Shown here in pieces: positions 19,231-44,635 of a stretch of 44,635 bases of DNA. The notes below the pieces were generated by a model. That model worked only from the letters and a program-made list of their open reading frames with translations. It ran no database searches and had not been told where the DNA came from. The number at the start of each line of letters is the position of its first letter. The first letter of the stretch is position 1. This stretch comes from Candidatus Syntrophosphaera sp. (GTDB taxonomy: Bacteria > Cloacimonadota > Cloacimonadia > Cloacimonadales > Cloacimonadaceae). The stretch is taken from positions 1 through 44,635 of the forward strand of contig JAHYIU010000009.1 of assembly GCA_019429425.1 (NCBI GenBank), given 5' to 3'. Position numbers and translations under genes: made by a program.

Positions 19231-19308
19231 GAAATATTTCATCATTTCCGGAAAAACATCAGAGCTTGGTGCTTTCTTGATGCCTACAAAAGAACAATTG
19301 TCCCGGTT

Positions 19309-21741
19309 TCAATCCTTGTTCATCTGCAACGCGCCGGCGAAGCAAAGCTTGGTGCAGAGCGAGCAGCCGACGCATTTGTCCTTGTCGATCACGGGATAAA
19401 GTTCCTCATCCAAAGTGATGGCCAGATAGGGGCAGCGGGTGCAGTTTCCGCAATGGACGCAGAGTTCGCGGGTGAGATTGCTGGATTTTGTTTTGGGGGG
19501 CAGGTCCATGAATTCGGTGATCGGATGGGGCTGGGCGATCCCGATGAGTTCCTTTACTGATCTGAGTTTTCTGGCCTCCAGAAGATGCGACAGGCCCAGC
19601 TTGAGTTCGTCGATGATGCCATAGCCATATTTTTCCGCGATGGTGCAGAATTGGACCGTGGAAGCGCCCAGGGCCAGGAAATTGGCCGCGTCCAGATAGT
19701 TCATGGCGCCGCCGTTTCCGGAGACCGTCACGCCCATTCCGCACACCCGGGCGAGGCTCAGATAGCTGATGGGAAGGACACCTTCGCCGCTCATGCCCAC
19801 GATCACGCCCTCGTCCCATTTGGCGCCTTCCTTATCCCTGAAACCCAGGCAGGGAAAGGTGTTGGCCAGGGTGATGCCTGCTTTCTTATCTGGATACTTG
19901 TCCAGAACCTCTTTAGCCGCCGTGATGATGGGATAAATCGCAGTCACGGCGCCGGTCAGCTTGAATAGTTTGGGGATCTCCGGAGCGCTGGTTTCCATCA
20001 CCCAAGCGATGATCTTGGCCGTCAGGGCTGGATCCTGGGCCACAATGTCGCCATGGGTGCCGTCTCCGCCCTGGGGACAGGACAGGCTGTATTCGATGCC
20101 CATGGCGCCTGCTTTTTCCAACTTCCGGGTGTTGGCTTGCCAGACGGCTTTGTCCGCTTCGTCGTCTCCGGTGACGGGCCCGCCGGTCGAGGCCATGGTC
20201 AGTTTATCCGGAAATTCCTGGATCAGCCGGGGTATTTCTTCGCAAACGCGGTCCAGGGGATGGTCCGAAACGTTGTCGCAATTGGCGAAGGTTTTGCCGC
20301 CCCAAACCCACATGTATTCGCCCGGGATGTGGATCTCCAGGCCGTCGAAGGCGGTTTTCATGATCCCGCCTGCCCAGCCGGCTTCGTAGGCCAGTTTCAT
20401 CTGCTCATAGCCGTCCGTTGGCGGCGCGGCGGAAAGCAGGAAGGGTGAATCGATGCGGCGGGCGAAGAAATCGGCCTCCAAGGGCACGGGATGCTTGTTC
20501 CAGCCGAAAACTGGCAGGCAGCTTTTAACTGGTTTGGGTGGAGTCTCAAAAGCCGTGCCGCGCAAGTCTGAATCGACTTTCAGGGCTGTGTTTTTGCCGG
20601 AAGCAACAGCTTCCACGACCGTGGTGGGGCCGTTGGCCATATCCCCGCAGTGATAGATGTTTTGGCCTGTTTCCTTGAAGGCGGGGCGGTTTCCCACGGA
20701 GATCACCACCATGTCAAAAGGCCGGTAAAGTTCTGTAGAGCCTGGCTCATCCTGGATCCTGGAGGGATGGAAGGCTTCGCCGGGTGGCAGTTCGACACGT
20801 TTGGTTTTGATCCCGATTGTGTGGCCGGCCTCGTTGACGACCTCCGCGATGCGGGTGCGGGGGCTGAACGCGACGCCAGCTTCGACCAGTCCTTGCTTTT
20901 CGTCTTCCGTGAGGGGCATTTCGTGCCAGGCTTCCAGGGTGATCATTTCAGCGTGCGCGGCGCCGCGCAGTTTGGCCGTGAGGGCCTGGTCGGCTGCGAT
21001 GGCGCCACCAACGAGAGCAATCCGTTTTCCTTCAAAGAGATAGCAGCCTGGGTTTTTCAGGATGTCCATGCCGTAGAGGGCGGTCTCGTCGCCGGGAATG
21101 TTCAAGCGGATGGGATCATTCAGACCTCCGGCCAGGATCACGGCGTCATATCCACTGCTTAGGAGTTCGGCCGCGCTGTTCACTTTTTCCTTGATATGAC
21201 TGATCTTGAAAACCTCGGTCAGATAGAGCAGGTCGGACAAGAGCACGCCTCTGTCCAAGCGTTCGGAAGGGATCAGATTGACCTGGCCGCCCAAGGGCTC
21301 GGGATCGATGATATCGACCTCATAGCCAAGCTGGATAAGGCTTACGGCCGCTCCGACGCCTGCCGGCCCGCCACCCGCGATGGCGACCTTTCTGCCGTTT
21401 TGGGCCACCGGGGCAAATTCCGGCACCTGGCCAAGTTCGCGGGCCTTGCGCACGATCGCGGCCTGCACTTCCGGGATGCGGATGGGAGTGTCGAAAGTCT
21501 CTCTGGAACAGGCCTGAACGCAGTGGTAATCCGGGCAAACACTGCCGCAGATCCCTCCCAAAGGATTGCTGGACAGGATGATACCCGCCGCGCGCTTAAA
21601 ATCGGAAGGGCGTCCCTGAGCCGCAGCCATGATGAAATCCGCGGGCGAGCAATCGCAGGGGCAGGCTGTCTTGCAGGGTTTCTCGGCGCAGAATTCGCAG
21701 CGCGCGATCTCGCTCAGCAACTGGGCATCGGTCAGGATCAT
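19309..21741 (-). CDS. PreT-PreA fusion, dihydropyrimidine dehydrogenase-like flavo-Fe-S enzyme
   Basis: The 810-residue protein follows the domain order of animal dihydropyrimidine dehydrogenase. N-terminal [4Fe-4S] cysteines are C15, C18, C23, C27 and C65, C69, C74, C78. An FAD domain (GGGPAG, 123-128) and an NAD(P)H domain (IALVGGAIAADQA, about 241) follow. An FMN barrel runs from about 410 (SAAPPTDGYEQ, MKTA with K462, SLSCP at 552-556, LANT at 625-628). Two C-terminal ferredoxin clusters (CVHCGNCTRCP and CVGCSLCTKLC) end it. It should move electrons from NAD(P)H to an FMN-bound substrate. The catalytic loop Cys of the family is replaced by Val567 and one pyrimidine-binding Asn by Ser552, so the substrate may not be uracil or thymine. 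Confidence 0.85.
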   Translation of the reverse strand: MILTDAQLLSEIARCEFCAEKPCKTACPCDCSPADFIMAAAQGRPSDFKRAAGIILSSNPLGGICGSVCPDYHCVQACSRETFDTPIRIPEVQAAIVRKARELGQVPEFAPVAQNGRKVAIAGGGPAGVGAAVSLIQLGYEVDIIDPEPLGGQVNLIPSERLDRGVLLSDLLYLTEVFKISHIKEKVNSAAELLSSGYDAVILAGGLNDPIRLNIPGDETALYGMDILKNPGCYLFEGKRIALVGGAIAADQALTAKLRGAAHAEMITLEAWHEMPLTEDEKQGLVEAGVAFSPRTRIAEVVNEAGHTIGIKTKRVELPPGEAFHPSRIQDEPGSTELYRPFDMVVISVGNRPAFKETGQNIYHCGDMANGPTTVVEAVASGKNTALKVDSDLRGTAFETPPKPVKSCLPVFGWNKHPVPLEADFFARRIDSPFLLSAAPPTDGYEQMKLAYEAGWAGGIMKTAFDGLEIHIPGEYMWVWGGKTFANCDNVSDHPLDRVCEEIPRLIQEFPDKLTMASTGGPVTGDDEADKAVWQANTRKLEKAGAMGIEYSLSCPQGGDGTHGDIVAQDPALTAKIIAWVMETSAPEIPKLFKLTGAVTAIYPIITAAKEVLDKYPDKKAGITLANTFPCLGFRDKEGAKWDEGVIVGMSGEGVLPISYLSLARVCGMGVTVSGNGGAMNYLDAANFLALGASTVQFCTIAEKYGYGIIDELKLGLSHLLEARKLRSVKELIGIAQPHPITEFMDLPPKTKSSNLTRELCVHCGNCTRCPYLAITLDEELYPVIDKDKCVGCSLCTKLCFAGALQMNKD

Positions 21742-21869
21742 ATCCGTTCTCCTTGTCTGGCAAAAAGTTAGGCAATGCCATCCTTTTCCCCAAAATACCC
21801 GTATCCGTCAATGAAAAACTTGGCGCTCCACCTGGGGACAGGATAGCAAGCCTGCGCGGATAAATTGCT

Positions 21870-21898
21870 TTGACAAAAACCCCCCGCCAAAATAGCTT
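21870..21898 (+). promoter_or_regulatory. candidate promoter of the peptidase-dapB-dapF operon
   Basis: TTGACA (21870-21875), 17 bases, then TAGCTT (21893-21898). The peptidase start at 21930 follows 31 bases later. Confidence 0.4.
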
Positions 21899-21929
21899 GC
21901 GCGAAAGAAAAGGATAAATGGAGACTCGC

Positions 21930-23054
21930 ATGAACACTGATGTAGTCCAGTATTTCCTCGAACTGCTCGCCATAGACAGCGAATCCAGGGACGAGCGGGC
22001 CATGGTCGACCGCCTGATAGCGGACCTGAAAGCCCTCGGAGCCGTGGTCGAAGAGGATGACTGCCACAAAACAAGCGGCGGCAACGCGGGCAATATCCAC
22101 GCCTTGTTTCCAGGCCGCAAGGACAAAAAGCCGGTCCTCTTCTGCGCCCACGCGGATACTGTCAAACCGGGCAAAGGGATCAAGGCTTCCATCACAGAGG
22201 GGCGCATCCACACGGACGGGAAGACCGTTCTGGGCGGAGACGACAAATCCGGTATCGCGGAGATCATCCTGGGCATCAAGGCTTTTCTGGACGAGGGGAT
22301 GGACCACGCCCCGATCGAAGTTTTGATCACCGTTTCAGAGGAGATCGGGCTGCTGGGTGCCAAGCATTTTGACAAAAGCAAGCTCCAGGCCGCCTTCGGA
22401 TATGCCCTGGATGCCCATCGGGTCGGCGATCTGGTGGTTGGCGCGCCAGCCCAGAACTCGATCAGGATTACGGTCACCGGCAAGGAGGCGCACGCCGGAG
22501 TCGAGCCGGAGAAAGGCATCAACGCCATCCGGATCGCCAGCGAGGCCATATCCGCAATGCCCTTGGGCCGCATCGACCATGAAACGACCTGCAACATCGG
22601 CATCATCAGCGGCGGGACGGCCACCAACATCGTTCCCAACAGCGTTGTGGTCCAAGGTGAAGCCCGCAGCCACAATCCGGTCAAACTGGACCAGGTGACT
22701 CAGGATATCCGCCATGCCGTGGAAAGCACGGTCAATCGGCACAAATACGATTTTGGCAGCGCCGCCTTTGTCTGGGATGCGCATACTGAATACCAATCCT
22801 TCCGCATTCAGGAAGGAGAGCCGGTCGTGCAGGTAGCCCTGGACGCCCTGAAAAGCCTGGGCATCAGGGAGAAAGTGACCGTGGGCGGAGGCGGCAGCGA
22901 TGCCAACATAATCAACGCGGCCGGTCTTCCCATGATCATCTGCGGCACCGGGATGAACAAGGTGCACACCGTGGAAGAGGACATCGAGGTCGAAGAACTG
23001 AGGCGCGGAGCGGCTTTCATCGCCGCCCTGATCAGCGTCTACTCCGCTTTGTGA
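21930..23054 (+). CDS. M20-family metallopeptidase, peptidase T-like
   Basis: The 374-residue protein is a two-metal aminoacyl hydrolase. Zinc ligands appear in order: CAHADT (H74), GGDDKSG (D104), TVSEEIG (E137/E138 general base and ligand), LDAHR (D161) and a C-terminal KVHTVEE His. The middle lid domain (residues about 173-275) carries AHAGVEPEKGINAI, usual in M20 dimerising domains. The start at 21930 has GGAG seven bases ahead; an ATG at 21918 is possible. It acts on peptides in the cytoplasm. The dapB gene follows after 9 bases, so a link to peptide recycling or lysine/DAP supply is possible, but a desuccinylase (DapE) role is not shown. Confidence 0.85.
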   Translation: MNTDVVQYFLELLAIDSESRDERAMVDRLIADLKALGAVVEEDDCHKTSGGNAGNIHALFPGRKDKKPVLFCAHADTVKPGKGIKASITEGRIHTDGKTVLGGDDKSGIAEIILGIKAFLDEGMDHAPIEVLITVSEEIGLLGAKHFDKSKLQAAFGYALDAHRVGDLVVGAPAQNSIRITVTGKEAHAGVEPEKGINAIRIASEAISAMPLGRIDHETTCNIGIISGGTATNIVPNSVVVQGEARSHNPVKLDQVTQDIRHAVESTVNRHKYDFGSAAFVWDAHTEYQSFRIQEGEPVVQVALDALKSLGIREKVTVGGGGSDANIINAAGLPMIICGTGMNKVHTVEEDIEVEELRRGAAFIAALISVYSAL

Positions 23055-23063
23055 GGTAAAAGT

Positions 23064-23804
23064 ATGTTACAGATAACTTTACTCGGCTATGGTAAGATGG
23101 GCCGGATGATCCACAGCCTGGCCGAAGCGCACGGCTGCCAGGTGCTTTCCATCATCGATCCCACGCAGGAAGGCTGCGAGAAGGAGATTACAGCTTCCAA
23201 TCTGGCTGAGGTCTGCCTCGATTTCAGCCATCCGGATGCCGTCATGGACAACATCCGCAAGGTCGCCTCAGCCGGGAAAAACCTGGTTGTTGGCACCACC
23301 GGCTGGAACAAATATCTCTCCGAGGTTCAGGAACTGGTGGAACGGAACAGGATCGGCATGCTCTGGGGCGCGAATTTTTCCATCGGCATGAATCTTTTCA
23401 CCCGCATAGTCCATTTCGCTACCTCGGTCTGCGACAAGTTTCCCGATTACGATGTCTGCGGCTGGGAAATGCATCACAACCAGAAGGCCGACAGCCCTTC
23501 CGGGACGGCGATCCAACTGGCCAACGCGATCATCGCGGAAAGCAGCAGAAAGGAAACCGCGGTCTTTGACAAGCTCGAAAGGCGCATCCAGCGCGACGAG
23601 CTGCATTTCGCCAGCCTGCGCGGGGGAGCGGTGCCAGGCACCCACAACGTGATCTTCGACAGCAACACCGACAGCCTCGAACTCACCCATAGAGTGCGTT
23701 CCCGGGCCTGTTTTGCCGTTGGGGCGCTGCAGGCTGCGCAATGGATATCCATACGCAAGGGCCTGCACAGCTTCAACCAGATGATGGAAGACCTGCTATG
23801 CTGA
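23064..23804 (+). CDS. dapB: 4-hydroxy-tetrahydrodipicolinate reductase
   Basis: This 246-residue enzyme reduces 4-hydroxy-tetrahydrodipicolinate with NAD(P)H in the DAP/lysine pathway. The Rossmann motif LLGYGKMGRMI is at residues 6-16, VVGTTGWNK follows the cofactor site, and the substrate-binding signature HHNQKADSPSGTA gives the catalytic His and Lys. FSIGMNLF is also typical. Length is slightly below the common 250-270. It lies 9 bases after the M20 peptidase and its end overlaps the dapF start by 7 bases, so these genes form one operon. DAP is needed for the peptidoglycan of diderm cells. Confidence 0.93.
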   Translation: MLQITLLGYGKMGRMIHSLAEAHGCQVLSIIDPTQEGCEKEITASNLAEVCLDFSHPDAVMDNIRKVASAGKNLVVGTTGWNKYLSEVQELVERNRIGMLWGANFSIGMNLFTRIVHFATSVCDKFPDYDVCGWEMHHNQKADSPSGTAIQLANAIIAESSRKETAVFDKLERRIQRDELHFASLRGGAVPGTHNVIFDSNTDSLELTHRVRSRACFAVGALQAAQWISIRKGLHSFNQMMEDLLC

Positions 23805-24574
23805 TCCCCTTCCGCAAGATGCAAGCCCAAGGCAACGATTTTATCATCCTGCTGCTGACCGGGCAGAAAGAAAGCCGGCTTTCTCTGGAAGCACTGGCCA
23901 TGGACATTTGTGACCGCAGGAAAGGAGCCGGGGCCGACGGTTTGGTCTTATTGCTGGACGATCCGGAAGCAGATGCCCGGATGACAATCTTCAACAGCGA
24001 CGGAAGCCGGGCCGAGATGTGCGGTTCAGCCCTGCGCTGCTGTTCCAGGCTGGTTTACGAAATCACGGGCAGGACAGAGCTTAGCATCGCCACGGACGAC
24101 GGGATCAAAACTGCAAGCATCGCAAACGATTGCGTCGAAGTGAACATGGGTAAACCGGACCTGTTCTACGCGGACAAACGCGTCGCAGAGGTGCGGGGCA
24201 GCTTGGTGGGGGTCGGCAACCTGCATTTTGTCTCCTTCTGGGAGAACCTGGTTGACCAGGAATACAAGTACGGACCGGTTTTGGAACGGCATCCGGACTT
24301 TCCCGGCGAAGTCAATTCCCAGTTTGTTCGCGTTATCGGGCGCGGTGAGATCGAGCTTAGGATCTGGGAGAGGGGCTGTGGCACCACCCAGGCTTGTGGC
24401 ACCGGCGCGGTGGCCAGTGTGTTCTGTGGTATCGGCAAAGACTTGCTGGACAACGAGGTAAAGGTAAACATGCCCGGCGGAAATGTTTGCGTGAGATACC
24501 AGGACAACGGGGAATTTATCCTGGCGGGAAGCGTGGAGCACGTATATAGCGGAGTCTACAGATGGAAAATTTAG
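23798..24574 (+). CDS. dapF: diaminopimelate epimerase
   Basis: The 258-residue protein interconverts LL- and meso-DAP. Both catalytic cysteines are present: C75 (SDGSRAEMCGSALRCC) and C200 (RGCGTTQACGTGAVAS), in the two mirror halves. The N-terminal FRKMQAQGNDF is the usual family start, which fixes the ATG at 23798, inside the end of dapB; a longer upstream frame is not family-like. The usual MCGNGxRC is MCGSALRC here, a mild change. The next gene (RodZ-like) begins 13 bases before its stop codon. Confidence 0.93.
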   Translation: MLIPFRKMQAQGNDFIILLLTGQKESRLSLEALAMDICDRRKGAGADGLVLLLDDPEADARMTIFNSDGSRAEMCGSALRCCSRLVYEITGRTELSIATDDGIKTASIANDCVEVNMGKPDLFYADKRVAEVRGSLVGVGNLHFVSFWENLVDQEYKYGPVLERHPDFPGEVNSQFVRVIGRGEIELRIWERGCGTTQACGTGAVASVFCGIGKDLLDNEVKVNMPGGNVCVRYQDNGEFILAGSVEHVYSGVYRWKI

Positions 24575-25182
24575 GCGCGCAGCTGCGTAAATTGCGTGAG
24601 GACAAGGGCCTGAGCTACGCGAAGGTGCAGGAGGACCTGCTGTTGCGGGAGCTTCAGATCCGCCTGATGGAGGACAACCGCTTTTCCGAACTGGGGCCTT
24701 CCGGCCTGGCGCGGGCGATGGTCCACAAATACGCGGCCTATCTGGAAGCGGACCTGAATGAGGTGATGGCGGAGCTGAAGGTGATGCTGCCCGAGCGGAT
24801 CAACAAGGAATTCAAGCCCAAGAAGGTGGTCAAGGAAAAGAAGATCCTGCTTTCACCCAACTTCCTTTGGCTGATCGGGATCATCCTCTTCGTGGTGGTT
24901 TTGGGGACCATCCTCTGGCACGCCTATACCCGGGGTTGGCTGGAAACGCCTGATATTTTCAAGTCTTCAGCCGCGGACACGACCGTCGTTGTAAGCAAGG
25001 AACACCAGGAGCCAAAGCCTGATCCGATGCGGGACCGGCAAAAGCAAATTTCCGAAGCGCTGGGCAGGCAAAGCTCCGCGCCGGTTTCCAACGCAATCCG
25101 GGAGACCATAGCTGTCCAGGACAGTACCGATCATCTGGGGCAGATATTGGGACCTTCCCAAGTGAACGTGCCCCTGAATTGA
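24562..25182 (+). CDS. RodZ-like protein: HTH_25 domain, single membrane segment, periplasmic tail
   Basis: In this 206-residue protein, residues 1-75 form the Xre-like HTH_25 domain of RodZ (LGAQLRKLREDKGLSYAKV, LLLRELQIRLMEDNRF, SGLARAMVHKYAAYLEAD). A basic stretch (KPKKVVKEKK) leads into one membrane segment at about 101-120, and a polar tail of about 85 residues follows outside. RodZ links the MreB cytoskeleton to wall synthesis; the tail here lacks an obvious beta domain, so it is a short version. Its start overlaps dapF by 13 bases, which places it with the peptidoglycan precursor genes. mreB is not in the window. Confidence 0.75.
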   Translation: MENLGAQLRKLREDKGLSYAKVQEDLLLRELQIRLMEDNRFSELGPSGLARAMVHKYAAYLEADLNEVMAELKVMLPERINKEFKPKKVVKEKKILLSPNFLWLIGIILFVVVLGTILWHAYTRGWLETPDIFKSSAADTTVVVSKEHQEPKPDPMRDRQKQISEALGRQSSAPVSNAIRETIAVQDSTDHLGQILGPSQVNVPLN

Positions 25183-25228
25183 CCTTAGGGGCGTTAATCC
25201 TCTTCCAGAGAGCGTTCACAGTTTTCGC

Positions 25229-25256
25229 TTGACAATGGGCAGATTTTAAACATAAT
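25229..25256 (+). promoter_or_regulatory. promoter of the ferritin-like gene
   Basis: TTGACA (25229-25234), 16 bases, then CATAAT (25251-25256). The start codon is 39 bases further on, behind CTGGAGGAA. Confidence 0.6.
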
Positions 25257-25295
25257 ATCTTAAAACCAAAAATTCAAACTAATCTGGAGGAAATA

Positions 25296-25781
25296 ATGCC
25301 AGCATATTCAATTAACGAGATCATTGAAATGGCCGTGCAGATTGAGCGCAACGGCTATGCCTATTACCATGAAGCCACCAAGAGGGCGGACCTCGATCCC
25401 GCCAGCCGCGATTTGATGATAAACTTGCGCGACGCCGAACTGAATCACGAAAAGACCTTTCTGAGCCTGAGGGACGACGCGGACATGCAGAATCTCGAGC
25501 TTTCCCAAGATTGGGAGATGGTGGCCGCATATCTGAAGACGATCGTGGACAGCCGGATCTTCAACGACGAGGATTCCGCCATCCGCAAGGCCACCGAGGC
25601 CAAGGACATTTTCGGCCTTTTGGACATGGCCATCAGCTTCGAAAAGGACACACTGCTCTATTTCCACGCCATCAGCGACAGCATCAATAATCCCCGGGCC
25701 TTGCTAGTCCTGAGGCGCATCATCAATGAGGAAGTGTCCCACGTCCTGAAACTCAACGATTACAAGAAGAGCATTTCCTAA
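25296..25781 (+). CDS. rubrerythrin-like ferritin-fold protein without rubredoxin domain
   Basis: The 161-residue four-helix protein has a full di-iron ligand set: E17, E48 with H51 (ELNH), E116 and E146 with H149 (EVSH). The rubredoxin-like CxxC end of classical rubrerythrin is missing. Such proteins usually reduce peroxide or handle iron in anaerobes; the electron donor is unknown here. It has its own TTGACA promoter and a strong GGAGG site. The lytic transglycosylase gene begins 7 bases after it, so the two may share a transcript. Confidence 0.85.
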   Translation: MPAYSINEIIEMAVQIERNGYAYYHEATKRADLDPASRDLMINLRDAELNHEKTFLSLRDDADMQNLELSQDWEMVAAYLKTIVDSRIFNDEDSAIRKATEAKDIFGLLDMAISFEKDTLLYFHAISDSINNPRALLVLRRIINEEVSHVLKLNDYKKSIS

Positions 25782-25788
25782 GCCCGAA

Positions 25789-26310
25789 ATGCCCGCGCGT
25801 AAATCCAAAGGCAGGGCCAGGAGGATATTCTACCTTCCCCTGATCCTGCTTTTGGCGCTTCTGATCCTGGTCTACAACCCCGTCTCGGTGCGGCTGATGA
25901 CGGTCGGAGTGGCGGTCTGGTACGGACTCGATCCCGGCATTTTCTACCGTCTGATCAATGCCGAAAGCCGTTTCCGCAGCTTTGCCGTTTCCCCTTCTGC
26001 CGCGATCGGGCTCGGCCAGGTGAAGGAATCCACCGCGCAATACATCCACGTGAAACACAGGCGGGGCATGCTCTTCGTGCCTTTCTACAATCTGCGGATG
26101 TCCGCCCGTTATCTGCGCTATCTGCAAAAGCAATTCTCGGACAACTGGAGCCTGGTCCTGGCAGCCTACAATTGGGGCGAAAACAACGTCGCCAGGGCCA
26201 TGCGCGGCATCGAGATCGATCCGGAAGCGGATTACCGCGAGCGCTTTTCCGACGTTCCGGAAACCTACCATTTCATCAATAAAATCCTGCCTGCCGCAAA
26301 AAAGGCTTGA
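25789..26310 (+). CDS. membrane-anchored lytic murein transglycosylase, SLT domain
   Basis: Of 173 residues, a basic N-terminus and a membrane segment (about 13-29) anchor the protein. The remainder is a goose-lysozyme-like SLT domain with catalytic E59 (LINAESRF), GLGQVKEST (74-82) and AAYNWGENNV. It cleaves the glycan strands of peptidoglycan on the outer face of the inner membrane. The length is near the minimum for one SLT domain with no extra modules. The start is 7 bases behind the ferritin-like gene, without a strong ribosome-binding site, so it depends on coupling. It lies in a stretch rich in wall-related genes. Confidence 0.87.
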   Translation: MPARKSKGRARRIFYLPLILLLALLILVYNPVSVRLMTVGVAVWYGLDPGIFYRLINAESRFRSFAVSPSAAIGLGQVKESTAQYIHVKHRRGMLFVPFYNLRMSARYLRYLQKQFSDNWSLVLAAYNWGENNVARAMRGIEIDPEADYRERFSDVPETYHFINKILPAAKKA

Positions 26311-26364
26311 CGGGAATCAAGACCGTGAAATAGTTAGATAACATTAAGCTTTCAGGAGTTACTC

Positions 26365-27024
26365 ATGTTGCAGAAACAACAGGGAAATACACTTTTCTGG
26401 GTGGTGAGCGTCATCCTGGCCTTGGCCCTGATCTTCATCCTGGCCCTTTCCGGCAGGTTTAACCTCGATCCGGAAAAGAACGTGGACGACTGCACCACCA
26501 ATATGAAAAACATTTGGGTGGCCGCAAACGACTATATGCTGGACAGCCAGGCCGATTTCTCCGGGGACCTGGACGTCCTGCGCAATTCCAGAAAACCGGA
26601 CAGCAAGGCCTACTACCTTCCCGAGGAAAAATACTGCCCCGAATCCCAAGGCAGCAAAGACGCTTACCAGGTTTTCGGCAAGCACGTCACCGAAGTGATG
26701 GAGGGCGAAACCCGGCATTACAACGGCATCCTGACCCTCTGCCCGAACCTCGGCCAGTTTTCCAAACACATCCTGGACAAGGCTTTCTATGACAACATGA
26801 GCATCTCCAAACTGCAAAACGTGATGATCAACGACCTGGGCAAGATCGACCAAAACACCAAAAACAACGCCCGGCTCAAAGCCGAGCTCATGCAGAAGTA
26901 TTTTGATTACTGGAAGAACAACACCCTGACCGAATTTCAGGCCTGCATGGACGATCCTGCCTACAAGAGCATGAGGATCGAGGTCACCGGCGAAACTCCG
27001 GTCACCGAAGACGAATTCTTCTAA
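26365..27024 (+). CDS. membrane-anchored, pilin-like protein of unknown function
   Basis: This 219-residue protein has an N-terminal hydrophobic helix (residues about 10-30, FWVVSVILALALIFILALS) after a short polar start, then CTTNMKNIWVAANDYMLDS, which resembles the N-terminal helix continuation of type II pseudopilins. There is no clear prepilin peptidase site (Gly-Phe-Thr-Leu type; GNTLFW at 7-12 is the nearest). Cysteines at about 43, 92, 125 and 193 could pair. No other pilus or secretion genes are nearby. It starts behind AGGAG and ends in front of a structured terminator. The pilin link is only a resemblance. Confidence 0.6.
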   Translation: MLQKQQGNTLFWVVSVILALALIFILALSGRFNLDPEKNVDDCTTNMKNIWVAANDYMLDSQADFSGDLDVLRNSRKPDSKAYYLPEEKYCPESQGSKDAYQVFGKHVTEVMEGETRHYNGILTLCPNLGQFSKHILDKAFYDNMSISKLQNVMINDLGKIDQNTKNNARLKAELMQKYFDYWKNNTLTEFQACMDDPAYKSMRIEVTGETPVTEDEFF

Positions 27025-27040
27025 AACCCCGCGGTCTTTA

Positions 27041-27115
27041 AAAAACCCCTGCAAGCACGGTATGGCGCCTTGAGGGTACCTTGGCCAAAAAGCCATCGTT
27101 CTTGCGGGGTTTTTC
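27041..27115 (+). terminator. structured terminator between the pilin-like gene and folC
   Basis: AAAAACCCCTGCAAG (27041-27055) pairs with CTTGCGGGGTTTTT (27101-27114) with one bulged T, ending in a T-run. The 45-nt apical part has an inner stem (GGCGCC...GGTACC region). A second possible left arm, AAAACCCCGC at 27023-27032, can pair with the same right arm, giving two exclusive folds. Confidence 0.65.
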
Positions 27116-27159
27116 TCTGCCCGCGAACCGCGGATAAATAAGCGCGAACAAGGATCAGC

Positions 27160-28449
27160 ATGCAATATCAGGAATTTCTGGACCACATCTACCGCAAATA
27201 CTCCGGCAACGTGAAACTCGAGCTGGACCGGATGCGAAACCTGCTTGAGGAGATGGGCGATCCCCAAAACTCCCTGCGCGGATTCCACATCGCCGGAACC
27301 AACGGCAAGGGAAGCGTTTGCGCCACCCTCGAGGCCCTCTGCCTGGCGCATGGATGGCACACCGGCCTGAACACCTCGCCCCACCTGATCGATTACACGG
27401 AACGTTTCCGGCTCGATGGCCAGGAACTGCCTTTCGAGCGGATCCTTGAGACCTTTCACCGTTATGAGCAGCTGTTTGAAAAGTGGGACGCCTCGTTCTT
27501 TGAGATCACCACCGCCATCGCGTTCCAATTGTTCAAGGAGGAACAGGTCCAAACCGCTGTGATCGAGGTTGGGCTGGGGGGCCGGCTCGACGCCACAAAC
27601 CTCTTCAATCCTGATGTTTGCGCCATCACCACCATCGGCCTGGACCACGTCAAGACCCTGGGCGGCACCCTGGAACTGATCGCGGCTGAAAAAGCCGGCA
27701 TCACCAAGCCGGGGATACCTCTCGTGCTGGGCAGGATCGAACCCGGCCCCCGAAAGGTCATCATGGCCAGGGCCCGGGAACTGCAGGCCCCTCTTTATGC
27801 CATCGGAAAAGACTTTAACGCGCGCATCGCGGCCAGGCGGATCACAGGTCTGGAGCTGGATTACAGTTTCGGGCGCCACGTCTATAAAAACCTGCGCACC
27901 AACCTGATCGGCGAACACCAGGCCGCCAATGTCGCCGTGGCCCTCACCGCCTTTCTGCTCCACGCGAAAAGGCGCGGGCTGCAGGTCTCGGCGCGCAAGA
28001 TAAGACAAGCTCTCTTGAATGTCAAATGGCGAGGCAGGATGCAGGTTTTGAGCTCTGAGCCGCTCATCATTGCCGACGGCGCGCACAACGTCCAGGGCGT
28101 GCAAGCATTGCTGGCCACCCTGCATAAACTATATCCCAGCCGCCGTTTCCGCTTCCTCATCTCCATCCTGGCAGACAAGAATTACAAAGAAATGATCGCA
28201 ATTTTCTGCGGCAAAGCGGAAAGGGTCTACGTGGCCCAAAACACCTCCGACCGCGCCGCCAGCCTGGAAGAGCAGGTCGCCCAGATCAAAAAGCACGGCG
28301 TGCCCTACGTTACGGCGGGATCGGTCGCGGAGGCCTTTCAGATCGCGCGCAGCGAGCTTGGGCAGCGGGACATCCTCGTCTGCGGCGGTTCGCTCTATAC
28401 CGTGGGTGAGGTCCTCAACAGCTTCAAGCCTGATCCTTCCAAGCCATAA
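27160..28449 (+). CDS. folC: folylpolyglutamate/dihydrofolate synthase
   Basis: The 429-residue ATP-dependent ligase of the Mur family adds glutamate to folates. The P-loop GTNGKGSV is at residues 46-53, followed by SPHLIDYTERFRLDG, FEITTAIAF, EVGLGGRLDATN (Mg/ATP site) and TTIGLDHVKTLGGTLE. The C-terminal domain begins near ADGAHNVQG. The length matches bacterial FolC. It stands alone after a terminator and is closed by its own terminator. A TAAATAA sequence at 27134 may be part of its promoter, but there is no clear -35 box. Confidence 0.93.
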   Translation: MQYQEFLDHIYRKYSGNVKLELDRMRNLLEEMGDPQNSLRGFHIAGTNGKGSVCATLEALCLAHGWHTGLNTSPHLIDYTERFRLDGQELPFERILETFHRYEQLFEKWDASFFEITTAIAFQLFKEEQVQTAVIEVGLGGRLDATNLFNPDVCAITTIGLDHVKTLGGTLELIAAEKAGITKPGIPLVLGRIEPGPRKVIMARARELQAPLYAIGKDFNARIAARRITGLELDYSFGRHVYKNLRTNLIGEHQAANVAVALTAFLLHAKRRGLQVSARKIRQALLNVKWRGRMQVLSSEPLIIADGAHNVQGVQALLATLHKLYPSRRFRFLISILADKNYKEMIAIFCGKAERVYVAQNTSDRAASLEEQVAQIKKHGVPYVTAGSVAEAFQIARSELGQRDILVCGGSLYTVGEVLNSFKPDPSKP

Positions 28450-28479
28450 GCTTGCCTGGCAGGTCTTGTTTTCACCTCG

Positions 28480-28502
28480 GACCGGACATCCGGTCTTTTT
28501 TA
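28480..28502 (+). terminator. rho-independent terminator of folC
   Basis: GACCGG / CCGGTC stem with loop ACAT (28480-28495), then six T residues; 31 bases after the folC stop codon. Confidence 0.9.
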
Positions 28503-28567
28503 AGTCCCGGAGGGCGCGACACAGCAACATGCCAGAGACTGATTATTCTGTCTCACCCTCCGGGACT
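28503..28567. repeat. inverted-repeat element with AGTCCCGGAGGG arms
   Basis: AGTCCCGGAGGG (28503-28514) and CCCTCCGGGACT (28556-28567) are exact 12-bp inverted arms around a 41-nt centre with a smaller inverted repeat (AGAC/GTCT). Elements with GTCCCGGAGGG-type ends are common dispersed repeats in some bacteria, from memory only. It directly abuts the folC terminator. Confidence 0.7.
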
Positions 28568-29037
28568 CCTATTTGTGCACGAACGTTGATACTTACTCAA
28601 GCTCATTTCATCGGATAAACCCTTAGGGCGCAGTCTGTTAACAAACCGGTTTTTAACCGGTTCAGGACAATAGGCGGGGGGATTTATCCCGGGTATTTGC
28701 GGGGTTTGAATGTCTCTATCAGTAATTCCCCGCCCCTCCCCAAACACAGATATGATCTGTGTTTGGGGAGGGGCGGGGCTGTTTTTCCAGCCATGTCGGT
28801 CTTAAAAATGCGATGGCTAAAGCCACCGCCTATGTTCCTTCACCCCACCTGCGGCGGGGTTTGTCAACTGCCTGAGTCTGGAGGGCGACGGATCTTAGCC
28901 AGGTAGTTGCACCAACAGCGATTGTTCCGCACCCACCGCAATAACCTGTCGCTCCCTTCGGGGCTTACCTACTTACTTTGAAAGAAATCTGAAAATTCCT
29001 AATCTCTATACAATTCCCACTAAAAAATGATCATTTG
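28568..29037. other. gene-free stretch filled with short palindromes
   Basis: No coding region is credible in the gap 28450-29313. This part holds AACCGGTTTTTAACCGGTT (28644-28662), the strong hairpin at 28728-28778, GCGATGGCTAAAGCCACCGC (28810-28829), and a degenerate pair GGAGGGCGAC (28880) / GTCGCTCCCT (28948). It looks like a dump of decayed dispersed repeats. Bases 29127-29258 after palindrome copy 4 show nothing clear. Confidence 0.5.
28728..28786. terminator. perfect 24-bp hairpin followed by a T-run
   Basis: The arm CCCCGCCCCTCCCCAAACAC plus AGAT (28728-28751) is exactly complementary to 28755-28778, with loop ATG, and CTGTTTTT follows on the plus strand. It can act as a terminator on the plus strand. 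It is about 280 bases away from folC, which already has a terminator, so it may be a separate element. Confidence 0.55.
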
Positions 29038-29126
29038 GCTCCCCTTATCAATACGCTATCAATACGGACTCACTACGGACTTTGTCCGTAATGAGTCCGT
29101 ATTGACACCGTATTGATAAGGGGGGC
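29038..29126. repeat. 89-nt palindromic repeat, copy 4 (TTT orientation)
   Basis: The loop TTT is at 29081-29083. It is the reverse-oriented relative of copies 2 and 3: the CGCTATC variant is in its left arm, and it shares a CACTACGG unit with copy 2. The tips are GCTCCCC and GGGGGGC. It lies between folC and a secreted-protein gene on the same strand. Confidence 0.95.
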
Positions 29127-29258
29127 GGGAAGGGGGAAAGCAGGGCGAATAGTGGCATAAATATATGTTAGGTATAACTATAGAGAGATGGAGGCGAAAA
29201 CAGGCTTTGAGCAGGACAGAAAGGGTAAAAATCTCCGGGGCGGGTGTGAAAATATTCC

Positions 29259-29286
29259 TTGACATGAGGACTGGCATATGTAAATA
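29259..29286 (+). promoter_or_regulatory. promoter of the 29314-30630 gene
   Basis: TTGACA (29259-29264), 16 bases, then TAAATA (29281-29286); AATAAT at 18-base spacing is an alternative -10. The start codon at 29314 follows AAAGGAG. Confidence 0.6.
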
Positions 29287-29313
29287 ATGTCGCCAATTAC
29301 AAAGGAGCATATT

Positions 29314-30630
29314 ATGAAAAAGATCATGGTCCTTTCTTTGTTGATCCTGCTCCCGCTGGCCATATGGGGAGCGGATCTCGATCTCTCCGCCATCTCCAGC
29401 AAGCTGGCCAGGGCTTTTATTTCTGACAGCCGCGGGATGTGGGTGCCAACCCAGATCACATCCAACGACGTTTACGGCAGCGTTTATGATCCCTATATGC
29501 GGATCGTGCTTGATTACGGGACCCAACTGACGATGCCGGATTCGATCTCGATCTTCGAATACGACAGCAGCGCGGAGGAATGGGTCAAGCTGGCCGTGAA
29601 CCGTTATCAGTACAACGCCCAGGGCCGCATCGTGCAGGGCATCATGTACTATAACACAGGGTATATGTATGTGCCCGGAGTCCGCATTACGAGTACCTAC
29701 AACAACCAGGACTGGCTGACCCACATGTATGTGGACTTCTTCAGCTTTGTGGACCAAACGTGGTCACCCTCAACGCGTTTTCACGTCCTCTATGACGGCC
29801 CGCAGATCGAAAACATCTATACCTGGAGCTGGGATAGTAGTTCTGGGGTCGATTCCTACAGCAAGATAAACATGCTGTTCGACACCCAGGGCAGGATCAT
29901 CGAGGAGATCGATCAGGTTTCCGCGGATTCCACCAGTTGGATCAACGATTACCGGCTTGTCCGGAGCTATCATTCCTCGGACACCTCCACGAACCTGACT
30001 TTCATCCACCACATATCCCAATATCTGCCGCTGATGTTCGCTTTCGAGGACGTGGACATGCTCGATCCGTCCAAGCCGCTGGAGGAGACCGAATACAACT
30101 GGATGCGGCTGGGCTGGATGGAAAATGAACGTAATGAATACAGCTACAATGCAGAAGACCTCTGTAGCATGCAAACCTTGTCCTGGTGGGACTTGGATCA
30201 TTGGGTCGAGGTCGTGCGTTTCACTAATTTATACTATTATTTTGAAGAGATCTTTCAGGAATTCACCTGGGAATGGGACAACGGCAACTGGGTGAATACC
30301 ATGATGGACCAGTATGAATGGACTTTTGTGGATGTGGCCAATGCGGATCCGGTGCTTCCCGGACCCGGTGAAATGGCCCTGCGGCTGTATCCGACGCCCT
30401 TCTCCGGAAAGCTGAACATCAGCCTGCGGAGCCAGGGGCAGGATCCTGTCAGGGTGCAGATCTACAACCTTAAAGGCCAAAAGATCCGGGAATGGAATTG
30501 CGCCGGCTGCCAAACCACGGAATGGGACGGATTGGACGCTGCCGGTAATGAGGCTGGAGCGGGGATCTATCTCGTCAAAGCCAGCTCCGGCCGGGACTTC
30601 CAGACCGCGAAGTGCCTCAAGCTCAAATAG
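29314..30630 (+). CDS. secreted protein with FlgD-type C-terminal tail
   Basis: The 438-residue protein begins with a signal peptide (MKKIMVLSLLILLPLAIWGA). The body (residues about 20-350) is rich in Tyr, Trp and Asp, with loose repeats of the type YNAQGRIVQ / FDTQGRIIEE and WV...W strands, suggesting a repetitive beta structure. I do not recognise a catalytic family. The final 85 residues form the FlgD-like tail (YPTPFSGKLNIS, IYNLKGQKIREW, WDGLDAAGNE, AGIYLVKAS). The start at 29314 was chosen for AAAGGAG spacing and the signal peptide; an upstream ATG at 29287 is less likely. Single-gene unit with its own promoter. Confidence 0.83.
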   Translation: MKKIMVLSLLILLPLAIWGADLDLSAISSKLARAFISDSRGMWVPTQITSNDVYGSVYDPYMRIVLDYGTQLTMPDSISIFEYDSSAEEWVKLAVNRYQYNAQGRIVQGIMYYNTGYMYVPGVRITSTYNNQDWLTHMYVDFFSFVDQTWSPSTRFHVLYDGPQIENIYTWSWDSSSGVDSYSKINMLFDTQGRIIEEIDQVSADSTSWINDYRLVRSYHSSDTSTNLTFIHHISQYLPLMFAFEDVDMLDPSKPLEETEYNWMRLGWMENERNEYSYNAEDLCSMQTLSWWDLDHWVEVVRFTNLYYYFEEIFQEFTWEWDNGNWVNTMMDQYEWTFVDVANADPVLPGPGEMALRLYPTPFSGKLNISLRSQGQDPVRVQIYNLKGQKIREWNCAGCQTTEWDGLDAAGNEAGAGIYLVKASSGRDFQTAKCLKLK

Positions 30631-30740
30631 AGACTGGAAGAAAACGTTACCGCCGGCGGTATTTCCGCTTATAATTTAATCAGGCCCGGCCTGAAACCGC
30701 GGGGCTTTGAAGTCCCCGGAAAGCGGGCTTGCGAGGTTTG

Positions 30741-31442
30741 ATGAATTATAAAGAACACTATCGCGTTGACGCGGAAACATTTGACTATTGGGCCGATTAC
30801 CATTTCACCCCCACCGAGGCCATACGCGACAGGATGACCCTACGTTTGGCCCGGATCCAGCCAGGGGAGAGGGTTTTGGACGTGGGCAGCGGAAACGGCT
30901 GGTTCAGTTTGCAAGCAGCTTCCCGGGACGTGGAAGTGACCGCCATGGACCTCAGCGAGGCGAATCTGGCCCGGATCAAACAAAGTGACGGGCGGATCCA
31001 GACCTGGCTGGCGGACGCTTTGGAACCCCCTGCCATCGAGGGAAAGTTTGACCTCGTTGTGGCACTGGAAGTATTGGAGCATTTGGTCGATCCCGGTCGC
31101 GCTTTGGCTGCCTGGAAAAACCTGCTCAAACCAGGCGGCAGGCTGCTGCTCACGGTTCCCTACAAGGAACAGATCCGCTATTCGCTCTGCATCCATTGCA
31201 ACCAAAAAACTCCCCACAACGCCCATCTGCACAGCTTCGACCGGGAATCCCTGGCCGCCCTGGTGCTCCAGAACGGAATGAAAGTGCTCCGGGCGGAACT
31301 TTTTGCCCATAAACTCCAGTCCCATCTGCGTCTGGACCGGCTGACCCGCCAGCTGCCTTTTCCGCTCTGGCGCGGCAGCGACCGGATTTGCGGGATTACC
31401 GGCGACAAATACAACTATCTGGCAATTCTTTGCTCTCTGTGA
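30741..31442 (+). CDS. class I SAM-dependent methyltransferase
   Basis: This 233-residue protein has the methyltransferase motifs in order: VLDVGSGNGWFSL (motif I, about residues 47-59), VTAMDLSEANL (motif II acidic residue), LVVALEVLEHLVDPG (motif IV region) and LLKPGGRLLLTVPY (motif VI). An IHCNQKTPHNAHLHSFD stretch with Cys and His residues lies after it and could shape the substrate site. Small-molecule or lipid/quinone methyltransferases of the UbiG/Methyltransf_11 type look like this; the substrate is unknown. The ATG at 30741 follows GAGG; an in-frame TTG lies 12 bases earlier. It stands alone between unrelated genes. Confidence 0.85.
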   Translation: MNYKEHYRVDAETFDYWADYHFTPTEAIRDRMTLRLARIQPGERVLDVGSGNGWFSLQAASRDVEVTAMDLSEANLARIKQSDGRIQTWLADALEPPAIEGKFDLVVALEVLEHLVDPGRALAAWKNLLKPGGRLLLTVPYKEQIRYSLCIHCNQKTPHNAHLHSFDRESLAALVLQNGMKVLRAELFAHKLQSHLRLDRLTRQLPFPLWRGSDRICGITGDKYNYLAILCSL

Positions 31443-39990: not shown

Positions 39991-40033
39991 GATTGATAGT
40001 TCCTTCGAAGAGAGGTCGGTCGCGAGCTTGTTT

Positions 40034-40112
40034 GCTTTCCTACGCCGGCATTATCCGGATCAGGTTCGAAGGGTATTTTCTCAGCCGGATCATCTCCAGC
40101 ACCCCTGTATGA
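40034..40112 (-). promoter_or_regulatory. TPP (THI-box) riboswitch aptamer
   Basis: Read on the minus strand: CAGGGGTGC, GGCTGAGAAAATACCC, TTCGAACCTGATCCGGATAA, TGCCGGCGTAGGAAAGC. These are the conserved CUGAGA, ACCUGA and GGAUAAUGCCxGCGUAG cores of the THI-box in the right order. It lies 77 bases in front of thi4 and should turn the thi operon down when thiamin diphosphate is abundant. Confidence 0.97.
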
Positions 40113-40119
40113 AGGTCAA

Positions 40120-40815: not shown

Positions 40816-42285
40816 ATGGACGACACGAAGAAGAAAAAACTCACCCATGTGTCCGGTGCCCCGGTGGCGGACAACAACGACATCAAGACTGCCGGAAAGC
40901 GCGGCCCGCTCTTGATGGAAGACGTATGGCTGGTGGAAAAGCTGGCCCATTTCGACCGTGAGGTCATTCCCGAACGCCGCATGCACGCGAAAGGCTCCGG
41001 CGCTTTCGGGACCTTCACCGTCACCCATGACATCAGCAAATACACCAAAGCGAAGATCTTTTCCGAGATCGGAAAAAAGACAGAACTGTTCGTACGCTTT
41101 TCCACAGTGGCCGGAGAACGCGGCGCCGCCGACGCGGAACGCGACATCCGCGGCTTTGCCGTCAAGTTTTACACCGAGGAAGGGAACTGGGACATCGTGG
41201 GCAACAACACTCCGGTGTTCTTTTTCCGCGACCCGCTGAGGTTTCCCGGATTGAACCACGCCGTTAAGCGCGATCCCAAGACCAACCTGCGCAGTGCCAG
41301 GAACAACTGGGACTTCTGGAGTTCCCTGCCCGAGGCGATCCACCAGGTCACCATCACGATGAGCGATCGTGGCATACCCTTGTCCTACAGGCACATGAAC
41401 GGTTACGGCTGCCACACATTCGCCATGTATGACAAGGAAAACCACAGGGTGTGGGTCAAATTCCACTTCAAAACCCAGCAGGGCATAAAAAACCTCACCG
41501 ACGCCGAAGCTGAGGCCCTGGTTGGCAAAGACCGCGAAAGCCATCAGCGCGATCTCTTCGACAGCATCGAGAAAGGCGATTTTCCCCGCTGGACCCTGTC
41601 CATCCAGGTAATGACGGAGGAAGAGGCCAAACAGCTGCCCTACAATCCGTTCGACGTTACCAAGATCTGGACCAAGAAGAAATGGCCCCTGATCGAGGTC
41701 GGCGTGCTGGAGCTTAACCGCAATCCGGAGAACTACTTCCAGGATGTGGAACAGGCTGCTTTCACCCCTGCCAACATCGTTCCCGGCATCGGCTATTCGC
41801 CAGACCGCATGCTGCAGGCGCGCCTTTTCTCCTATGGCGACGCGCAGCGCTACCGCCTGGGAGTCAACCACCATCAGATCCCTGTCAACAAACCCCGCGT
41901 TGAAGCGCATAGTTTCCACCGCGACGGCGCCCTGCGCCTGGATGGAAACTACGGCAGCACAACAGGATACGATCCCAACAGCTATGGCGAATGGCAGGAC
42001 CAGCCCGATTTCAAGGAACCGCCCTATCCGCTGGAAGGAGATGCTGACCGCTATGATTTCCACGCGGACGACAACGACTACTACAGCCAGACCCGCGACC
42101 TCTTCAACCTGATGAACGCGGAGCAGAAACAGGCCCTCTATGACAATACGGCCCGCAACATGGGCGACGCGCCCAAGGAGATCAAGATCCGCCACATAGT
42201 AAATTGCTACAAGGTTGATCCCGCCTATGGCGAAGGGGTCGCCAAAGCCAGCGGCATCCCGATGAGCGAGGTGGAGATCGACTGA
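40816..42285 (+). CDS. katA: monofunctional haem catalase, clade 3 type
   Basis: The 489-residue enzyme turns hydrogen peroxide into water and oxygen. The distal His is in [16 protein letters not shown], the distal Asn in [14 protein letters not shown], and the haem-ligand Tyr in [38 protein letters not shown] is also conserved (in parts: [22 protein letters not shown]). The length is that of small-subunit catalases. Its ATG is one base after the perR stop, with AAGGAG inside perR, so both are made together under peroxide control. No signal peptide, so it is cytoplasmic. Confidence 0.96.
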
Positions 42286-42468: not shown

Positions 42469-43238
42469 ATGTCTAAAACCTGTCTTGTATTGAGCATTCT
42501 GACGCTGTGCCTGGCATTCCTTTCAGCTCAGTCCGGTCCAGCTGATGTCCAGGAAGCTGAAGGAAACATCGACAGCGATGATGAGTATGTGCAGAATATG
42601 TATCAAAAGGGAGAGGCAGACAGCATCAAAGCCGATCCCCAATATCTATCCGCGGACCAGGCCCTGTTCGTGATGCCCACGGCCTATACAATGCCCCGGG
42701 GTACTTCAGCCCTCACCAGTTTCGAGTTGCTGATCCTACAGTACACCTATGCCCCCACGGACCGCATCCACCTCAGCGCGGGAACGGTCTTTCCCATCAC
42801 TTTTGACCTGCTCCGCTCCTTCACCCTCGGGGGCAAGATCAACTACTTGCGCAAAGATGGCATCCAGGCCGCCTTTTACGGGTCATTCACTCCGGATGTG
42901 GAAGTGCGGATTGCCAATATCGGCCATGTGCTGAGCATCGGCGATCCCCACCGCAGCCTGCATTTTTCGGTTAGCAAGCCCTTTGGAGAGTATGAAGACA
43001 TCCTCGAAGGAGGATTTGTGTTCGGCCTCGGCGGTATTGCGGACCTATCCAAGCGCGTGGCCGCCATCGGAGAGTTCTATCTGTATGCCGGAGAAGGCGA
43101 TACCGCACAGATTTTGGCCTCGGTTTGCGTTTCAAGGGGGCCAAGATCAGTTGGGACTTGGGCGGATTCCGTCCTGTGGGCTACGATTTGGGAAGCTTTG
43201 TCGCCCTGCCCTTTATCAAGGCAACATTTCTGTTCTAA
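42469..43238 (+). pseudogene. outer-membrane-barrel-like envelope protein with a frameshift near its end
   Basis: The protein starts with a signal peptide (MSKTCLVLSILTLCLAFLSA) and continues as a beta-rich chain (SALTSFELLILQYTYAPTDRIHLSAGTVFP, in short strands). In the start frame the end reads as unlikely sequence to 43293. If one base is restored in the TTTT run at 43112-43115, the frame gives FGLGLRFKGAKISWDLGGF then LPFIKATFLF and stops at 43238. That is a typical barrel end with a terminal Phe. I therefore read it as a gene of about 257 codons with a 1-base loss, or a sequencing error at the T-run. Function unknown. Confidence 0.7.
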
Positions 43239-43358
43239 CGCGATGGAGGCCCCGGATCCGCAGACAGGCGCAAAACCTGGCGATCGCTTCTGAAAATCCT
43301 CTTTTTGCCTGATTTAATGAGGCTTCCGGGCACAAATCGATCTATCGGCCCAGCCATC

Positions 43359-43447
43359 GCCCCCCTTATCATTACGGTGTCAATACGGACTCATTACGGA
43401 CTTTGTCCGTAATGAGTCCGTATTGACACCGTAATGATAAGGGGGGC
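43359..43447. repeat. 89-nt palindromic repeat, copy 5 (perfect, TTT orientation)
   Basis: The arms 43359-43401 and 43405-43447 are exact 43-nt complements around TTT. The outer unit is CATTACGG in place of CAATACGG, and the matching unit in the other arm is changed to CCGTAATG, so the pairing is kept. The tips are GCCCCCC and GGGGGGC. A truncated restriction-enzyme relic begins 7 bases after it. Confidence 0.98.
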
Positions 43448-43453
43448 CAGACT

Positions 43454-43669
43454 GTGCAGATCAACCAAGATAAATACTTTGAGGGCATCACCCCGGAGTT
43501 GTGGAACTATCACATTGGCGGTTATCAGGTGCTGCATAAATACCTTAAAGACCGAAAGGGCAAAACCCTTGCCGATCCCATCCATCATTGCCTGATGGTT
43601 ACAGCTTTAGCGCTAACCCTAGATCTTCAGGCTCGGATAGATCAAATTATTGGAACCATTATCCAATAG
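43454..43669 (+). pseudogene. C-terminal relic of a type ISP restriction-modification enzyme
   Basis: The 71-codon frame from GTG 43454 reads VQINQDKYFEGITPELWNYH then IGGYQVLHKYLKDRKGKTL. The YFEGVPPEVWxxxIGGYQVxxKWLKDRKGR pattern is the conserved C-terminal (specificity) end of type ISP restriction-modification/helicase proteins of well over 1000 residues. Everything upstream is gone; the frame meets a TGA inside the palindrome at 43424. The natural end and the terminator behind it are kept. It is therefore the tail of a lost gene cut off exactly at palindrome copy 5. Confidence 0.75.
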
Positions 43670-43714: not shown

Positions 43715-43820
43715 CTATTTTACCATGATCATCTTCTTGGTAATGGTATCACCTTGAGCCTTAAGCTGATAGAAGTAGTCCCAATGCCCAGATAGCAAGA
43801 AAGATAATCATGCGTCTCAT
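43715..43820 (-). pseudogene. collapsed secreted-protein gene: signal peptide joined to the last codons of a FlgD-type tail
   Basis: On the minus strand a perfect AAAGGAGG site is followed by ATG (43820) and MRRMIIFLAIWALGLLLSA, a signal peptide, which stops at 43761. In another frame the same DNA runs on as YFYQLKAQGDTITKKMIMVK and a TAG at 43715, which is exactly how the last strand of a FlgD-type tail ends. The whole middle of the gene is missing. A 19-residue hydrophobic peptide could still be made. It follows the tail gene 43838-44635 by 17 bases on the same strand. Confidence 0.75.
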
Positions 43821-43837: not shown

Positions 43838-44635
43838 TCAGTAACATAACGTTACTTTTTTACATGTTATAATCCTCTCACCAAGTCTTAGCTTAATGAG
43901 ATAGACTCCTGAAGGTAGCTTATTACCCCTATTATCTTTACCATTCCAGTTGACAGAGTATTGCCCTGCCCCCCTTTGGCCATCATCAAGCTTTGCTACT
44001 AATTGTCCCTTGATGTTGAAAACAGAAATCCCGATCATGCCTGGCTCTTTCAATTCATAAGTCAATGAAAGGCTTTGATTAAAAGGATTGGGATAGGTAA
44101 AAAGCTGCACAGGACAGGTAATGACATTATCATCTGTGGAATTACCATTATATTCTGTTGTGAACACTTTGAATACCAACGGGCTGCTTGTGCGGTTTGA
44201 GAGAAGGATCTCGCCGTGTCCGTCGCCATTAACATCCCCCAAGAAGTAAGATAATTGTGTTGACGCGTTAGGGTTGTAATCTTCATTGATTATATAATCC
44301 AATACTAATCCATCCATATTATCCCAGCGGAAGAAATTGAAAATCTCGAGTTGGGGGGCACCATAACACAAGTAACTGCTATTATTGAATCTGGCATAGT
44401 ATGTGGACAGGATATTGGTTGGGGGTGTTGTGTGCCATAGTTCAAACTCCAGATCAGCAGTATCAGATCCCCAACATATACAAAATTCATTACCTTCAAA
44501 ATAAGCCAAATCATCGAAAGAATCATTGTTAAAATCTCCCATGATGAGTCTTAGAATAATATAAGTGTCAAATTCTCCGTAAGTTGCATCGCATATATTA
44601 TCAAAGACTACCCCCCCCCCAAAAAAGACCTTTAG
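43838..44635 (-). CDS. secreted FG-GAP-type protein with FlgD-type tail, 3' part (5' end outside window)
   Basis: The frame is open to the window end, so only about the last 265 codons are present; the ATG at 44542 is internal (LIMGDFNNDSFDDLAYF). Two FG-GAP/dockerin-like calcium loops are seen: GDFNNDSFDDLAY and GDVNGDGHGEILL. The tail follows (TYPNPFNQSLSL, VFNIKGQLVAKL, WNGKDNRGNK, SGVYLIKLR). Codon use is clearly more AT-rich than in the left part of the window, suggesting another origin or weaker selection. A run of ten G residues (minus strand) lies near the window edge within the frame. Confidence 0.75.
   Translation of the reverse strand, partial: LKVFFGGGVVFDNICDATYGEFDTYIILRLIMGDFNNDSFDDLAYFEGNEFCICWGSDTADLEFELWHTTPPTNILSTYYARFNNSSYLCYGAPQLEIFNFFRWDNMDGLVLDYIINEDYNPNASTQLSYFLGDVNGDGHGEILLSNRTSSPLVFKVFTTEYNGNSTDDNVITCPVQLFTYPNPFNQSLSLTYELKEPGMIGISVFNIKGQLVAKLDDGQRGAGQYSVNWNGKDNRGNKLPSGVYLIKLRLGERIITCKKVTLCY
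44611..44620. repeat. ten-base C/G homopolymer inside the partial secreted-protein gene
   Basis: Ten C residues on the plus strand (ten G in the coding sense), followed by six A. The tract is in the reading frame of the FG-GAP protein. It may be a slippage site; its place 15 bases from the window end also makes an assembly artefact possible. Confidence 0.6.

What the first reader, a model, noticed from the sequence alone, without database searches (positions are those of the whole stretch)
43359..43669. Restriction-enzyme relic cut off at the edge of a perfect palindrome
The last 71 codons of a type ISP restriction-modification protein begin 7 bases after palindrome copy 5; all upstream sequence of that gene is gone, but the natural stop and terminator remain. 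The palindrome lies at the break point. This suggests that the element took part in, or moved into, a deletion that removed a defence gene of several kilobases.
Basis: partly seen in the sequence, partly recalled or inferred. Interest (0 to 1): 0.6.

Follow-up and report, generated by a model that had tools for sequence, protein, structure and literature searches.

The report
Deleted restriction gene remnant beside palindrome
In an uncultured Cloacimonadota bacterium, the last 71 codons of a lost restriction-modification gene sit directly against one of about 76 copies of a mobile-looking DNA palindrome; the loss is real, but relatives lost the same gene at other points with no palindrome present, so the palindrome is at most one contributor.

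Summary
ORF 43454-43669 encodes the end of a Type_ISP_C specificity domain (E 1e-9), and homology to intact relatives starts 1-4 bases from the element edge. The missing ~970-990 codons (~3 kb) are absent from the 99.7%-complete assembly, except for a different intact gene (27% identity).

Corrections. (1) Intact relatives (1044-1078 codons) are Type IIG restriction-methyltransferases carrying that domain; the one scanned shows no helicase domain, so this is not a true Type ISP enzyme. (2) The gene is decaying in several relatives that lack the palindrome: a frameshift in one and truncations at codons 803 and 875 in others, all keeping the same stop, terminator and downstream gene. (3) The window has a second, ~4 kb deletion 110 bp downstream, inside a C25-peptidase gene, with no palindrome. 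(4) The palindrome is REP/REPIN-like: ~76 mostly intergenic copies, one 17 bp from a Y1 (RAYT-like) transposase gene. Only this one of 30 copies examined abuts a recognisable gene remnant.

Best reading: the element inserted into a dying restriction gene, and the upstream part was lost with one end at the element, most simply by recombination between two copies. A later insertion or an assembly join cannot be excluded. Real but modest.

The parts
42469..43238 (+). upstream gene (P0003), real stop at 43236-43238 after a one-base frameshift near 43110-43125; catalase-P0003 order conserved in G010, next gene there is an antiporter
43239..43356 (.). left flank: start resembles the G010 intergenic region downstream of the P0003 orthologue; no convincing ISP/IIG homology
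43357..43449 (-). REP/REPIN-like palindromic element, copy 5 (arms 43359-43401 and 43405-43447, three 11-bp TCAWTACGG units per arm, asymmetric ends TG...GA; reversed relative to the consensus orientation)
43451..43669 (+). 3' remnant (last ~71 codons) of a Type IIG restriction enzyme-methyltransferase gene carrying a Type_ISP_C specificity domain; codons 994-1064 of the L079 gene
43667..43701 (.). terminator hairpin (AAAAGCCCGGGGTATTTCCCCGGGCTTTTTT), shared with relatives
   Evidence: not listed by the consensus scan
43715..43781 (-). last ~21 codons of a Por-tailed C25-peptidase-like gene (4.1 kb in L081)
43782..43820 (-). first ~14 codons of the same C25-peptidase-like gene; ~4.0 kb deleted between these and the last codons, no palindrome at the join
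43838..44635 (-). FG-GAP / Por-secretion-tail gene, orthologous to the second gene downstream of the relic in L081 and G002; cut by the contig end

Best explanation
The 71 codons are the 3' remnant of a Type IIG restriction-methyltransferase gene that is decaying across related Cloacimonadota. In this lineage a REP/REPIN-like palindromic element, probably mobilised by a Y1 (RAYT-like) transposase, lay inside the gene at about codon 993. The ~3 kb upstream was then lost by a deletion ending at the element, most simply by homologous recombination with another copy downstream of the P0003 gene, leaving one intact element between two unrelated flanks. Shown: the remnant, the absence of the rest, the precise contact, and the element-transposase association. 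Inferred: the insertion, its order relative to the loss, and recombination between copies.
For: Domain match 1.1e-9 and homology from 43451. The rest of the gene is not elsewhere in a 99.7%-complete assembly; the only other hit is a different intact 1035-codon gene at 27% identity. Left flank not ISP. Flanking regions are unlinked in relatives. The element is perfect and intact, with 96 bases identical to another copy on C37, as expected if two copies recombined. About 76 copies provide partners. dN well below dS between remnant and relatives (0.08 against 0.37 with L079) fits recent loss. A Y1 transposase ORF lies 17 bp from a palindrome copy in this genome; all palindrome-rich genomes carry a Y1_Tnp above 65 bits, against 1 or 2 of the rest (one-sided p 0.004-0.016 depending on how G010 is counted, not corrected for relatedness).
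Against: Relatives lost the same gene at other points with no palindrome, and the neighbouring ~4 kb deletion has none, so ordinary deletion suffices. No genome was found with the element inside an otherwise intact gene. Palindrome junctions in this window are not clearly enriched at synteny breaks: 4 of 5 broken, against 6 of 13 of the other longer intergenic junctions, by hand count. The join is 1.2 kb from a contig end and GC falls from 0.53 to 0.41 across it.
Confidence: 0.5

Rival explanations
1. The gene was eroded by ordinary deletions, as in relatives, and the element inserted later into what had become intergenic DNA, happening to land at the edge of the remaining tail.
For: Independent palindrome-free truncations at codons 803 and 875 and a frameshifted copy; a palindrome-free ~4 kb deletion 110 bp away; 29 of 30 copies examined sit in DNA with no recognisable gene remnant against them.
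Against: The element edge and the homology edge coincide within 1-4 bases. With 76 copies in 2.38 Mb this is unlikely for any one chosen breakpoint (roughly 3e-4, or 3e-3 if insertion is confined to intergenic DNA; hand estimate).
Confidence: 0.27
2. Assembly chimera: a short-read assembler joined two loci at a ~93 bp repeat, so the contig is not a real chromosome segment here.
For: About 76 near-identical copies, a MAG in 134 contigs, the join near a contig end, a GC step across it. In relative G011 two contigs break beside a palindrome with a 141-bp overlap.
Against: A chimera should leave the rest of the gene on another contig, and none is found. Many other copies are spanned within contigs.
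Confidence: 0.15
3. The 71-codon ORF is a functional small protein, or the 3' region is kept for its terminator.
For: Open frame with GTG start; dN below dS; terminator shared with the four nearest relatives aligned.
Against: The fragment is only the end of a recognition domain, it begins at the element edge, the conserved codons can be explained by recent loss, and tails of several lengths remain in relatives.
Confidence: 0.04

Closest known systems
Type IIG restriction enzyme-methyltransferases (PADLOC PDLC03610)
   Same: Intact relative L079 matches this model at 3e-251 and the 71-codon remnant at 3.9e-13.
   Different: Here only the last ~7% of the gene remains; no catalytic part.
Type ISP enzymes LlaGI / LlaBIII
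   Same: Share the methyltransferase region with the intact relative; the PF18135 domain is named for this class.
   Different: Type ISP enzymes also carry an Mrr nuclease and SF2 ATPase (PMC4666363) and are 1406-1578 aa in the PDB hits; the scanned relative has 1044 codons and no helicase domain hit.
REP/REPIN elements and RAYT transposases (PMC3733652, PMC3116915)
   Same: High-copy, mostly intergenic palindromes; one copy directly beside a Y1 transposase gene in the same genome.
   Different: About 93 bp with 43-bp arms built of 11-bp units; no GTAG or CGTC tag at the ends; the TIRtron variant described in PMC3733652 may be nearer.

Membership tests
Type ISP restriction-modification enzyme | Type ISP C-terminal specificity domain | tested here: met
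   PF18135 1.1e-9 in the fragment, 2.3e-85 in L079
Type ISP restriction-modification enzyme | Mrr nuclease plus SF2 helicase-like ATPase in the same chain | tested here: not met
   L079 relative (1044 codons) has no such Pfam hit; the fragment itself lacks this part
Type IIG restriction enzyme-methyltransferase | single chain of ~1000 aa with N6-methyltransferase and specificity domain | tested here: met
   relatives G004 1046, G006 1078, L079 1044 codons; N6_Mtase in L079; PDLC03610 3e-251. Tested on relatives; the fragment holds only the end of the chain
REP/REPIN-RAYT system | many intergenic palindromic copies | tested here: met
   about 76 copies; flank survey of 30
REP/REPIN-RAYT system | Y1/HUH transposase gene flanked by the repeat | tested here: met
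   Y1_Tnp 3.2e-24, ORF L193:1390-1950, palindrome at L193:1281-1373; on one side only
REP/REPIN-RAYT system | GTAG or CGTC tag at one end | tested here: not met
   ends are TG...GA in 18 of 30 copies, with variants
REP/REPIN-RAYT system | transposase mobilises the repeat | not testable with these tools
   needs an experiment

The most novel reading that the evidence does not exclude
In Cloacimonadota, species-specific palindromes built of 11-bp units and linked to Y1 transposases act as recombination junctions that remodel chromosomes and strip defence genes. Copies 3 and 4 of the window also bound a block inserted between two segments that are neighbours in several relatives.
Probability: 0.15. 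Interest if true: 0.55.

Novelty: new member of a known kind. Interest (0 to 1): 0.33.

Why it matters
It documents repeated loss of one restriction gene across related Cloacimonadota and gives one case where a transposase-linked palindrome marks the breakpoint. The palindrome family, rather than the relic, is the part worth following: it may be a REP-like system outside the groups where REPs were first studied.

Tried and rejected
Inversion or translocation of the rest of the gene within the genome: rejected, the remainder is not found. Element inserted within a longer ISP pseudogene with ISP sequence on both sides: rejected, the left flank has no such homology (one of six upstream comparisons, L085, was reached by only 9 of 500 shuffles, and a reverse-strand match to G004 by 0 of 200; both treated as chance among about 20 tests). 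Palindromes as general rearrangement hotspots: suggestive but not significant in this window. Rfam: no match at the palindrome, only a TPP riboswitch. Papers on Cloacimonetes palindromes: none relevant found. A hairpin at the palindrome-free truncations of L081 and L083: none found.

Full report
Setting. The window is the whole contig C9 of a 2.38 Mb, 134-contig, 99.7%-complete metagenome genome. The named records nearest to the relic are mostly Candidatus Cloacimonadota, and the genome is taken to belong there.

Observation. The palindrome at 43359-43447 is perfect over 43 + 43 bases. The 71-codon ORF at 43454-43669 is the end of a Type_ISP_C domain. Thirty aligned copies show that the element extends two bases beyond the palindrome on each side (TG...GA), so it covers 43357-43449. 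Homology to intact genes begins at 43451. The two therefore touch within 1-4 bases.

What the gene was. Intact relatives have 1044-1078 codons. The scanned one (L079) matches a PADLOC Type IIG model at 3e-251 and carries N6_Mtase and Type_ISP_C but no helicase domain. Its PDB matches are to LlaBIII, LlaGI and a 1029-aa methyltransferase entry; all cover the methyltransferase part, and two reach into the specificity part. The lost protein was a Type IIG enzyme with a Type-ISP-like recognition domain. The genome keeps another, distantly related enzyme of this class on C8.

Decay in relatives. With L079 (full, 1064 open codons) as ruler, L080 is nearly full length but frameshifted, L081 and L082 begin at codon 803, L083 (=G002) at 875, and the window at 994. 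All share the stop codon, the terminator region and a convergent Por-tail gene downstream. None contains the palindrome motif, and no hairpin was found at the L081 or L083 breaks. Their left neighbours differ.

A second deletion. L081 has a ~4 kb C25-peptidase-like gene between the relic and the FG-GAP gene, and G002 has the same spacing. The window keeps only the first ~14 and last ~21 codons, joined at about 43782 with a few bases of shared sequence and no palindrome.

The element. About 76 copies lie in this genome. Related palindromes are abundant in G007, G008, G009 and G011, rare in G010 (with one imperfect pattern match per strand in G004), and absent in the other six. Each arm holds three 11-bp units (TCAWTACGG plus two bases). 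In this genome one copy lies 17 bp beyond the stop of a 186-aa Y1_Tnp ORF. G009 and G008 also have one within about 1 kb of a Y1_Tnp gene, and G011 has a palindrome of the same design but different sequence, TTAATCAAG units, beside its own. Co-occurrence across 13 genomes gives p 0.004-0.016, without correction for kinship. The GTAG/CGTC tags of described REPs (PMC3733652) are missing.

Does the element cause loss? Of 30 copies surveyed, only this one abuts a recognisable gene remnant. Nine of the longer other flanking frames had no Pfam match; the longest frame is an acetate-kinase-like gene read from its own start, and not every flanking frame was tested. Synteny in the window is broken at 4 of 5 palindrome junctions and 6 of 13 other long intergenic junctions, by hand count, which is not a clear difference. 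One suggestive case: the segments ending at 17727 and starting near 30854 are close neighbours in G008 and G009, and similar neighbours in G004-G007, but are separated here by a block lying between copies 3 and 4.

Judgement. The relic and its contact with the element are real. Insertion into a dying gene followed by a deletion ending at the element, most simply recombination between copies, is the best reading at about 0.5. Later insertion, or an assembly join, remain open.

Noticed in passing
L193:1281-1950 (G000:C18) and L191, L192, L196: Species-specific palindromes built of 11-bp units lie close to Y1_Tnp (RAYT-like) genes in four genomes; G011 has a palindrome of different sequence (TTAATCAAG units) but the same design.
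   Followed up: partly
17727-30854: Palindrome copies 3 and 4 bound a ~10.8 kb block inserted between segments that are neighbours in G008 and G009.
   Followed up: partly
3557-3802; L134, L135: The ~140 bp left of copy 1, with a GC-rich hairpin in the relatives, is conserved beside a palindrome in G007 and G011, while the right flanks differ in all three.
   Followed up: partly
43715-43820: C25-peptidase-like gene with a ~4 kb internal deletion, ends retained.
   Followed up: yes
43110-43125: One-base frameshift in the P0003 gene relative to G010 and G011.
   Followed up: no
L132 / G000:C8:13670-16591: Intact second restriction-methyltransferase gene with ISP coupler and Type_ISP_C domains.
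   Followed up: partly
40019-40116: TPP riboswitch, minus strand, upstream of the 37243-39957 genes.
   Followed up: no
40816-42285 and L150 (G000:C112:3768-5270): Two catalase genes at 87% DNA identity in this genome.
   Followed up: no
28728-28778; 17462-17483 and 28232-28253: A perfect 24-nt hairpin, and a perfect 22-nt inverted repeat with arms 10.7 kb apart.
   Followed up: no
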